Positions 60,567-64,000 of a stretch of 64,000 bases of DNA are shown piece by piece. A program made the position numbers and the translations under genes. Numbering within the stretch: position 1 is the first letter of the stretch; each line of letters starts with the position of its first letter. Location of the stretch: contig MVAQ01000016.1 in assembly GCA_014825775.1 (NCBI GenBank), positions 62,001 through 126,000 of the forward strand, read 5' to 3'. Under the pieces are notes generated by a model, which was given only the letters and a program-made list of their open reading frames with translations, was not told where the DNA came from and searched no databases. This DNA comes from Krasilnikovozyma curviuscula (lineage: Eukaryota > Basidiomycota > Tremellomycetes > Cystofilobasidiales > Mrakiaceae).

Positions 60567-62851
60567 ATGATTGTGAGAAAATCGTCGATAGCAGCCATCT
60601 GCAGTGCTGTGATCTTCACCACCTTTCTCTTTCGCTGGTTCGTTGGTCGACTCTCAGGCAGCAGCACAGAGGATGACTGGAAGATCAACGAGGAGCATTC
60701 AGCAGGAGGTTTCAAGATACTGCCCATAGATCTTGGGACACCAATGAATACCCCTGTGGGAGATCACATCTCGTTCCTTGACAAAGAAATCAAGGCTGAG
60801 AGCATGGGCGATGACATGATTCAGAATTCTCCCGGTAATGACGAGGACGACATTCGTGTGCCTCAGATGCAGCCAGCCCATTCACATCCAGCACTGATAC
60901 CGATCAGCCAAGAAGAACTCGAATCGGAACTAGAAGCCATCGACCAAATGAGGGATGAAGACGCTGGCGATCAGGAATACCCCTCGACACCCGCCTCTTC
61001 TTCAAATCCTTCCCTGATGATCAAGATCAAGGACTCACTTTCACTTCAGAAGAAGCTCTTATCATTCATCCAACGCCCAGTAGCATCACATGACGAAGCC
61101 CTCCCCCAAAATGTGCTCAAATGCCCCTTAGAAGTGCATGACAGACAGGTAAATCCAGACCAACTGAAGGGAGAGAGGGAATTTTGGGCTGGTGTGAGCA
61201 AGGAAGACATTATATCGAGAAGAAGGTCATTAGTGAGCTATCTGGAGAGGCTTAGTGCTCGAGGCGAAGATGTTGTAGCGAAATCTGGACTAGGGCATGA
61301 CGGAGGAAGGGGCATTGTCGTCGCAGGGGGAAACAGGGTGAGTTCTTTTTCCTGGAAGTGACATCCGTAAAGACGTATTTAACGGATCATTGTGCCACTA
61401 TTATAGGACACAACTCGCCGAATCCTTACGCTCCTAAGGATGTTGCGACAAACCCACAAGAGTAAACTCCCCGTACAGGTGTTCCATTTCCCAGGAGAAA
61501 TCACGGCAGAGAATGAACAAAGGGAAATAATAGAGCTGGGTGGGACTCTGCACCAGTTTCAAGGTGTTCCACAGCTGAACATCTGGAAGAATTTCCGTAA
61601 GCCTTTGCTGTCAGGTGCTATATCTCAGGCAATTTTATCCTCACATACTCATCACAAATTTTGAAACAGAAATCAAAGCTCTCTCGATACTCTCTTCCAG
61701 CTTTTCTGAAGTTCTCTATCTGGATTCTGATAATCTCCCCCTCAGAGACCCCGCCAGCCTATTCGATTCACCACTATACTTAGACGAAGGGAGAGCAGTC
61801 TTCTGGCCGGATCTTAACAAAGACCATCCTGAAAATGCCATCTTTAGAATATTGGGGGAAGAGTGTAGTCATGAAGAGTGGCAGCTCGATTCGGGTAAGA
61901 TCAGCTTCTCCTACAGCCATCTTTGACAGTTTCCCAAGCCGAGATCAAAGCATTGGCTTACTTGTAAAGCTTTCCAGGTCAAATCCTTATTGACAAACGT
62001 GGGAATGGTGGTCTCAATTTGGCTGCACTGCATATAGCTGCTAAGATGCAGGAAGATCACGAATTCTGGTAAATTAATACACGTTATACCCAAAAGAAAA
62101 CAACTTTGACCGAGTCTGATGAAACTTTTAATTCGTTCTTTTTCTCAGGGTACGTCGCTTCTATACTTTCCACCGCGCTCTTTGATAGCGGGCTGCCTTT
62201 CAGTATTTGATGGTGTTCCATTAACTCTTCGATTGCTACAGTTCAAGCTTTCTGGTGGAGACAAAGATACTTTTGTGCGTCACTCTTCTGGTACTAGTAT
62301 GGCCATTTCTGATAATTAGCTTGTCTAATGGCTCACCTTCATTTAGCGATATGCGTTCCACGTCTTGGATCTACCTTTCGCAACGTCGCCTAGGTGGCTG
62401 TCTTCCGCTGGGTCACTGGCGATGGACGGCAGATTCTGTGGTAACACCATGCTTCAGGTCAGCACGGTACATTGCTCGTATTGTTAGGTTTCGGTCCTGA
62501 CTTCGGACACATCGATGTTGCGTGCCTTGATTTTTTTTTTATCGATAGTATGGCTTGCCTCCTTTGGAGACTCCTCTCTTTTGTCATGCTAACCTTTTAA
62601 AACATGTTGCTGGTGTTGGTCGGGGTAATACTTTTACACACATCAAACGAGCCAAGAAAAATCTAGAGCACGACCCGTCGCTGGACAATGCTAGAATGTG
62701 GGTGTATCAGGGGGCCGGAAGAGGAATGTGTGTCGATGTTGAGATGATAGGCGACGAAGATGGGGTTGTGACGGAGGCGTGGGACCATGTTGCGCTGAAG
62801 GGATTTGACAGCACTTACTATGACCTTGGAGGGACCGCTGGCGGTTGGTAA
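60567..62851 (+). CDS. MNN2-type alpha-mannosyltransferase (GT71), type II membrane protein
   Basis: Golgi alpha-1,2-mannosyltransferase-like enzyme (Mnn2/Mnn5 family), adding mannose branches to glycoprotein outer chains. The first ATG, 60567, gives a signal anchor (IAAICSAVIFTTFLFRWFVG). A Ser/Glu-rich stem of ~220 residues precedes the catalytic domain: DTTRRILTLLRMLRQTHKSK, VQVFHFPGE, SSSFSEVLYLDSDNLPLRDP (DxD), FWPDLNKDHPENAIF, SGQILIDKRGNGGLNLAALH, KLSGGDKDTF, RYAFHVLDLPF and GLPPLETPLFCHANLLKH. The stop is at 62849-62851. The EDHEFW/KLSGGDKDTF region only stays in frame if a single-nucleotide exon (G at 62149) lies between introns 62069-62148 and 62150-62241. Confidence 0.88.
62149..62149 (+). 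other. Candidate single-nucleotide exon in the GT71 gene
   Basis: The upstream exon ends GAATTCTG (62068, phase 2) and the downstream exon starts TTCAAGCTT at 62242. Joined directly, the frame is lost. The G at 62149 sits between a canonical acceptor (tttctcag) and a canonical donor (gtacgt); adding it restores TGG TTC AAG and the conserved GGDKDTF motif. The 80- and 92-nt introns are of normal size. Other combinations of AG and GT in 62069-62241 either miss the phase or hit a stop. Confidence 0.6.
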
Positions 62852-63226: not shown

Positions 63227-64000
63227 ATGAGTGGAAGACCAGGTGTTTCAAAGAAGGGGGAGAACTGGGAGCTGAGATCAGACTTGAACAGCGAATATAA
63301 GGAGAAGAGGGCAGATGCCATCAAAAGGGTCATTGCCAACATGACGGTGGGAAAGGATGTCAGTGGACTGTTCCCAGATGTGCTTAAAAATATGGTCAGT
63401 GATTCTGTCAACAGGACGAAACAGTGGTATCCATGTAGTGTAGTAGTTGCTGACGAGCTTCTCGACTGCATTTCTTCCCCTTTCTTTGCCCTTTTCCGCT
63501 ACAGCAAACTGACGATCTGGAGCAGAAGAAACTTGTATACCTGTATCTCATGAACTACGCCAAAACTCAACCAGAGCTCGTTATTTTAGCCGTCAATACT
63601 TTCGTCAAAGTGAGCGTCGACTGCGCTTGCTTAATTCGACATTTCTCCCAGCTGACGATTGATCTGTTCCAATAGGATACTTCTGATCCCAATCCTCTTG
63701 TTCGTGCTTTGGCAATCAGGACTATGGGTTGTCTCAGAGCAGAGAAGATCATCGATTACCTCTGCGACCCACTTCAAAAATGTCTTCGAGATGAGAACCC
63801 TTACGTCAGGAAAACGGCTGCTCTGGCGGTAGCGAAGCTGTATGACCTGAAGCCTGAACTAGCGATAGACTATGGATTTGTGGAACAGCTAAAGGATATG
63901 GTTGGTGACAGCAACCCAATGGTGAGTATCCCAGTCTCTGGCCACCACCCACTCCACATACTACATCGCTGATCTCGCTTTTTATGTAATCTCATCCACT
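63227..64000 (+). CDS. AP-1/AP-2 complex beta subunit (beta-adaptin), N-terminal part
   Basis: Large subunit of a clathrin adaptor complex that sorts cargo at the trans-Golgi or plasma membrane. ATG 63227 gives [24 protein letters not shown]-like helices follow: [20 protein letters not shown], then [20 protein letters not shown] and [20 protein letters not shown] and [20 protein letters not shown]. These are the invariant opening of beta-adaptins. Exons are 63227-63394, 63505-63609 and 63676-63921; the gene continues beyond the window. AP-1 (Apl2) cannot be told from AP-2 (Apl1) by this part alone, though AP-1/2 beta subunits are the closest match. Confidence 0.93.

What the first reader, a model, noticed from the sequence alone, without database searches (positions are those of the whole stretch)
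62069..62241. A single-nucleotide exon appears to be needed in an MNN2-type mannosyltransferase gene
The catalytic core of this GT71 gene is split so that TG (phase 2, ending 62068) and TTC (62242) need exactly one nucleotide between them. A lone G at 62149 lies between a perfect acceptor and a perfect donor and restores TGG TTC and the KLSGGDKDTF motif. I tried the other AG/GT pairs in the interval: joins give the wrong phase or a stop. One-nucleotide exons are almost unknown (a plant APC11 case is the one I know of). The spliceosome cannot define such an exon in the usual way, so two-step (recursive-like) intron removal with 1 nt left behind is a plausible mechanism.
Basis: partly seen in the sequence, partly recalled or inferred. 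Interest (0 to 1): 0.9.

Follow-up and report, generated by a model that had tools for sequence, protein, structure and literature searches.

The report
One-nucleotide exon in fungal mannosyltransferase gene
A yeast sugar-transferase gene very probably contains an exon of just one letter; such exons are rare but already reported in fungi and plants, so this is a well-supported new example rather than a new phenomenon.

Summary
A GT71 (MNN2-type) gene at 60567-62851 (+) needs exactly one nucleotide between 62068 and 62242. G62149, between CTCAG and GTACGT, is the only AG-N-GT there. W426 and F427 are adjacent in 24 of 24 aligned proteins. A gene finder trained on this genome without homology chose the same eight exons, the 1-nt one included; its best model without it is 8.4 nats worse. 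No shuffle of 20,000, and no other place in 608,000 strand-bases, reaches its splice-site score. Genome-wide, 26 sites fit a strong AG-G-GT pattern, three with higher scores; only this one is predicted as a 1-nt exon.

Two corrections. And 1-nt exons are not almost unknown: Cryptococcus neoformans (same class) has exons "as small as 1 bp" (2014), Fusarium CYP621A has an AG-G-GT one, plants have APC11 and VPS55; stepwise splicing was proposed in 2015. Verdict: new member of a known kind; RNA evidence is lacking.

The parts
60567..62851 (+). GT71 / MNN2-type mannosyltransferase gene, ATG to stop, 8 exons, 574 aa
   Evidence: Gene finder, translation, Pfam PF11051 E=3e-30, homologues to 64% identity
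60567..61337 (+). exon 1
61407..61596 (+). exon 2
61670..61894 (+). exon 3 (codes YLDSDN, residues 337-342)
61978..62068 (+). exon 4, ends in TG (phase 2)
62069..62148 (+). intron 4, 80 nt, GTAAAT...TCTGAT...TTTTTCTCAG; intronic part of donor at the 14th, of acceptor at the 99.8th percentile of 507 training introns
62149..62149 (+). exon 5: one nucleotide, G, third base of the Trp426 codon TGG
62150..62241 (+). intron 5, 92 nt, GTACGT...CTACAG; donor 36th, acceptor 63rd percentile
62242..62274 (+). exon 6, 33 nt, FKLSGGDKDTF
62347..62457 (+). exon 7
62549..62851 (+). exon 8 with stop codon

Best explanation
G62149 is a genuine, probably constitutive 1-nt exon of an otherwise ordinary GT71 gene of a Cystofilobasidiales-like basidiomycete yeast. 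Two normal short U2-type introns (80 and 92 nt) flank it. Because the acceptor of the first and the donor of the second lie one nucleotide apart, both introns can hardly be engaged at once; they are most likely recognised one at a time across the intron and removed in sequence. If intron 4 goes first, the G joins exon 4 and the second donor reads TGG|GTACGT (before: AGG|GTACGT). If intron 5 goes first, the first acceptor reads CTCAG|GTTC. Either way TGG (Trp426) is restored. Shown: sequence, frame, splice-site strength, protein conservation. Inferred: actual splicing, its order, constitutive use.
For: Exactly one nucleotide is needed, and W426-F427 are adjacent in 24 of 24 aligned proteins (the query plus 23 of the 120 listed homologues). 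It is the only AG-N-GT in the interval. A gene finder trained on 264 kb of this genome, no homology used, picks the identical exon; neither flanking intron was in the splice-site training set. Models without the 62148 acceptor lose 10.2 nats, models without the 62150 donor 8.4. Both introns have normal lengths (65.5 and 78.9 percentile). Chance: 0 of 20,000 shuffles; no other place in 608,000 strand-bases.
Against: No RNA data. No orthologous DNA was available. Intron 4's donor GTAAAT is weakish (14th percentile). The gene finder carries no penalty for tiny exons, so its margin overstates the odds; a prior for 1-nt exons of the order of 1e-4 (my guess) would cost about 9 nats. The gene itself lay in the training sequence, so its codons and other introns took part. 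Three of 25 other genome sites of the same pattern score higher without being predicted as 1-nt exons, so site strength alone is not proof. The candidate was picked out by a reader before testing.
Confidence: 0.9

Rival explanations
1. Assembly error: one base is missing at the exon 4 or exon 6 border, and a single ordinary 173-nt intron lies there.
For: The border has a GG run where a base could be dropped. 8% of 473 introns with both flanking exons >=60 nt are predicted at >=173 nt, though that tail probably contains prediction errors.
Against: The strong AG-G-GT would then be a coincidence (1.2e-4). Two short introns score 7.3 nats better than one of 173 nt, no penalty for the tiny exon counted. 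The rest of the gene has no frameshift.
Confidence: 0.05
2. A single non-canonical intron: TA-AG (62070-62241) or GT-CA (62069-62240). Both yield exactly the same mRNA, TTCTGGTTC.
For: Identical product follows directly from the sequence; fully spliced cDNA cannot exclude it.
Against: Such terminal dinucleotides are extremely rare for the spliceosome (recalled, not from a call); it leaves the strong internal AG-G-GT pair unexplained.
Confidence: 0.02
3. A different protein: another GT-AG join that inserts or deletes residues, e.g. intron 62069-62114 with read-through to FKLSGG, or an 88-nt exon 62115-62202.
For: These frames are open.
Against: The 62114 acceptor (ACCGAG) scores -2.55 and a 46-nt intron is below the 5th percentile of 60 nt. 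No insertion at this place in 24 of 24 aligned proteins.
Confidence: 0.02
4. A decayed gene with a frameshift here.
For: None beyond the phase mismatch.
Against: All other introns and frames are intact over 574 codons and the columns invariant in the alignment are kept.
Confidence: 0.01

Closest known systems
1-bp exons of Cryptococcus neoformans var. grubii H99 (PMC3990503; two passages and abstract start seen)
   Same: Same class (Tremellomycetes; placement recalled), intron-dense genes; [quoted passage not shown]
   Different: The passages name no gene for them; whether a GT71 gene is among them is unknown
Fusarium CYP621A one-nucleotide exon (PMC12940212; parts 1 and 2 of 3 read)
   [quoted passage not shown] 173 against 73 here)
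   Different: Ascomycete P450; supported by 18 SRA reads and found in all orthologues examined there; the G is the middle base of a Gly codon
Arabidopsis APC11 single-nucleotide exon (PMC4674806; parts 1 and 2 of 3 read)
   Same: 1-nt exon required for the frame; combined intron-definition and recursive model proposed
   Different: A, not G; plant; proven by mutation
Plant VPS55 1-nt exon (PMC8831610; passages read)
   Same: 1-nt exon with a strong donor, missed by annotation
   Different: Plant; conserved widely in land plants; alternative forms known
[D1,2] stwintrons (PMC12403724 abstract start in a listing; PMC5639578 passages)
   Same: Two adjacent U2 introns removed consecutively

Membership tests
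Single-nucleotide exon | One nucleotide bounded by AG and GT between two canonical introns | tested here: met
Single-nucleotide exon | The nucleotide is needed for the reading frame | tested here: met
   skipping gives a stop after 490 residues instead of 574
Single-nucleotide exon | Present in mature mRNA and changes when the base is mutated | not testable with these tools
Single-nucleotide exon | Conserved in orthologous genes | not testable with these tools
   no genomic DNA of fungal relatives was reached; protein joins only
[D1,2] stwintron | Inner intron splits outer donor between G and T (acceptor AG followed by TNNGT) | tested here: not met
   the acceptor is followed by GGTACGT
Zero-length exon / recursive ratchet site | AG directly followed by GT, nothing retained | tested here: not met
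   one G lies between and the frame needs it
GT71 (Pfam PF11051) | Match over the curated cut-off | tested here: met
   106 bits against 22
GT71 (Pfam PF11051) | alpha-1,2-mannosyltransferase activity (MNN2) | not testable with these tools
   inferred from family and homologue names only

The most novel reading that the evidence does not exclude
The adjoining splice sites make a checkpoint: skipping the G, keeping intron 4, or keeping intron 5 each produces a premature stop (after 490, 426 and 437 residues), so full-length enzyme requires ordered two-step splicing. If the exon is kept across Cystofilobasidiales, it would be a conserved one-nucleotide on/off switch for a GT71 mannosyltransferase.
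Probability: 0.1. Interest if true: 0.65.

Novelty: new member of a known kind. Interest (0 to 1): 0.4.

Why it matters
[quoted passage not shown] It shows that a plain gene finder without a minimum exon length can find one without homology. It offers a compact substrate for asking in which order two introns with adjoining sites are removed. It is also a warning: annotation pipelines can miss such exons, and cDNA alone can leave them unproven.

Tried and rejected
Paralogue: a second GT71 match (L001, contig C307) was found and translated in three frames, then left; whether it has an intron at this place was not examined. Duplication origin: introns 4 and 5 are not similar (local score 12; 90% of 1000 shuffles as good), so a recent tandem duplication is not supported. 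Genome-wide abundance: the strong AG-G-GT pattern is not enriched (26 against 49 for the reversed pattern; AG-H-GT 94 against 149), so 1-nt exons do not look common here; the reversed control does not keep dinucleotides. Of the 26 sites the 25 others were cut out (1.2 kb each, one 819 bases) and scored: 14 lie outside predicted genes, 9 serve as ordinary donors, 1 lies in an intron and 1 inside an exon; none was predicted as a 1-nt exon. In short pieces with little coding signal a true one could be missed. The 94 AG-H-GT sites were not scored. GC donors were not enumerated. Text finds in PMC5851062 and PMC8022950 gave no statement on 1-nt exons; passages of PMC11913375 were read and not used. 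PMC5587772 (single-nucleotide intron shift) is not held; I saw it only in a reference list.

Full report
What is there. Near the window's end, at 60567-62851 (+), a gene codes for a 574-aa GT71 protein (Pfam PF11051, 106 bits; translation checked). The best homologues are from Phaffia rhodozyma (64% over the searched part) and Mrakia frigida (63%), so the genome (22.4 Mb in 387 contigs) is probably that of a Cystofilobasidiales-like tremellomycete (inference). [quoted passage not shown] Eight exons are joined by GT-AG introns.

The phase problem is real. Exon 4 ends in TG at 62068 and exon 6 begins TTC at 62242. Joining them directly shifts the frame and stops after 490 residues; with G62149 the frame is open for 574 codons. 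In a 24-row alignment (the query and 23 of the 120 listed homologues, of 128 found) all rows have a residue on both sides of the join, in adjacent columns. Of the 120 listed homologues, 106 carry GDKD[TA][FY]. Counted back from that motif, the positions of W426-F427 hold WF in 47, YY in 22, YF in 17 and WY in 4. Of the other 16, 14 have a loop two residues shorter but still WF before SGGDKD, and two have FY or VY. So the protein wants two neighbouring aromatic residues there, with nothing between.

Independent gene finding. I wrote a small Viterbi gene finder and let it train itself on 264 kb of this genome (the window plus 200 kb). It was given no homology. It returned exactly the exons above, 62149-62149 included. 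It was the only 1-nt exon of 519 internal exons there; over 304 kb it was 1 of 597 in models with CDS of at least 300 nt. Neither flanking intron entered the splice-site training, though the rest of the gene did. Forbidding the acceptor at 62148 or the donor at 62069 costs 10.2 nats, forbidding the donor at 62150 8.4; the alternatives are truncated genes. The finder has no penalty for tiny exons, so these margins are upper bounds.

Chance. The AG-G-GT at 62147-62151 is the only AG-N-GT in the interval. Its summed score of 12.76 is reached in 0 of 20,000 dinucleotide shuffles of the interval and nowhere else in 608,000 strand-bases. Weaker pairs are common (6% of shuffles have one with a positive score), so the motif alone would prove little; its strength, with the frame and the protein, does. 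In the whole genome the pattern YYYYNYAGGGTRNGT occurs 26 times, against 49 for the reversed control. I cut out and scored the 25 others: 14 outside predicted genes, 9 ordinary donors, 1 in an intron, 1 inside an exon, none a 1-nt exon. Three of them have a higher AG-GT score than this one (L031, L033, L035).

(a) Some other joins are open: ten single GT-AG introns within the limits scanned, and one 88-nt internal exon. Protein conservation and site strength, not phase, speak against them. (b) TTCTG+G+TTC is also produced by one TA-AG intron (62070-62241) or one GT-CA intron (62069-62240). The proposed cDNA test therefore cannot decide; half-spliced RNAs or a G62149 mutant can.

How it works. 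Inference: the two sites are one nucleotide apart, so the two introns can hardly be committed at the same time. Each is of normal length (80 and 92 nt; median 73), so each can be recognised across the intron, one after the other. This is the scheme that Guo and Liu proposed for APC11 (PMC4674806); they also cite potato invertase, where the second intron leaves first. Here intron 4 has a very strong acceptor (99.8th percentile) and a weak donor (14th), intron 5 middling sites (36th and 63rd). Removing intron 4 changes the second donor's exon side from AGG to TGG, which does not improve it by the donor frequencies. The order is open. Each failure tested (skip, retention of intron 4, of intron 5, of both) gives a premature stop.

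Known or new. C. [quoted passage not shown] Fusarium CYP621A: AG-G-GT, supported by SRA reads (PMC12940212), whose authors call it the first fungal case. Plants: APC11 and VPS55. Five searches on micro or one-nucleotide exons (listings, of which I opened only the papers named here) and one joining 'mannosyltransferase' with 'microexon' (one unrelated paper) showed no report of one in a GT71 gene; most subscription papers are not held. This is a new, computationally strong member of a known kind.

Noticed in passing
L005 9466, L015 7217, L022 9361, L026 3461 (all +); L014 8858 and L023 5641 (counted on the reverse strand): The gene finder predicts six zero-length exons (AG directly followed by GT), i.e. 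possible back-to-back introns or ratchet sites; each could equally be one longer intron.
   Followed up: no
L001 (G000 contig C307, 1436-1888, minus strand): A second GT71-type match in the same genome, with one in-frame TGA in the match, perhaps intronic.
   Followed up: partly
whole genome G000: AG-N-GT with strong flanks is about half as frequent as its reversed control (26 against 49; 94 against 149), perhaps because such adjoining sites are selected against, perhaps from base composition.
   Followed up: no
63227-64000 (+): Another gene begins here and runs out of the window; its exon at 63676-63921 matches Cnd1 (97 bits) and Adaptin_N (79 bits) in Pfam, so probably an adaptin.
   Followed up: partly
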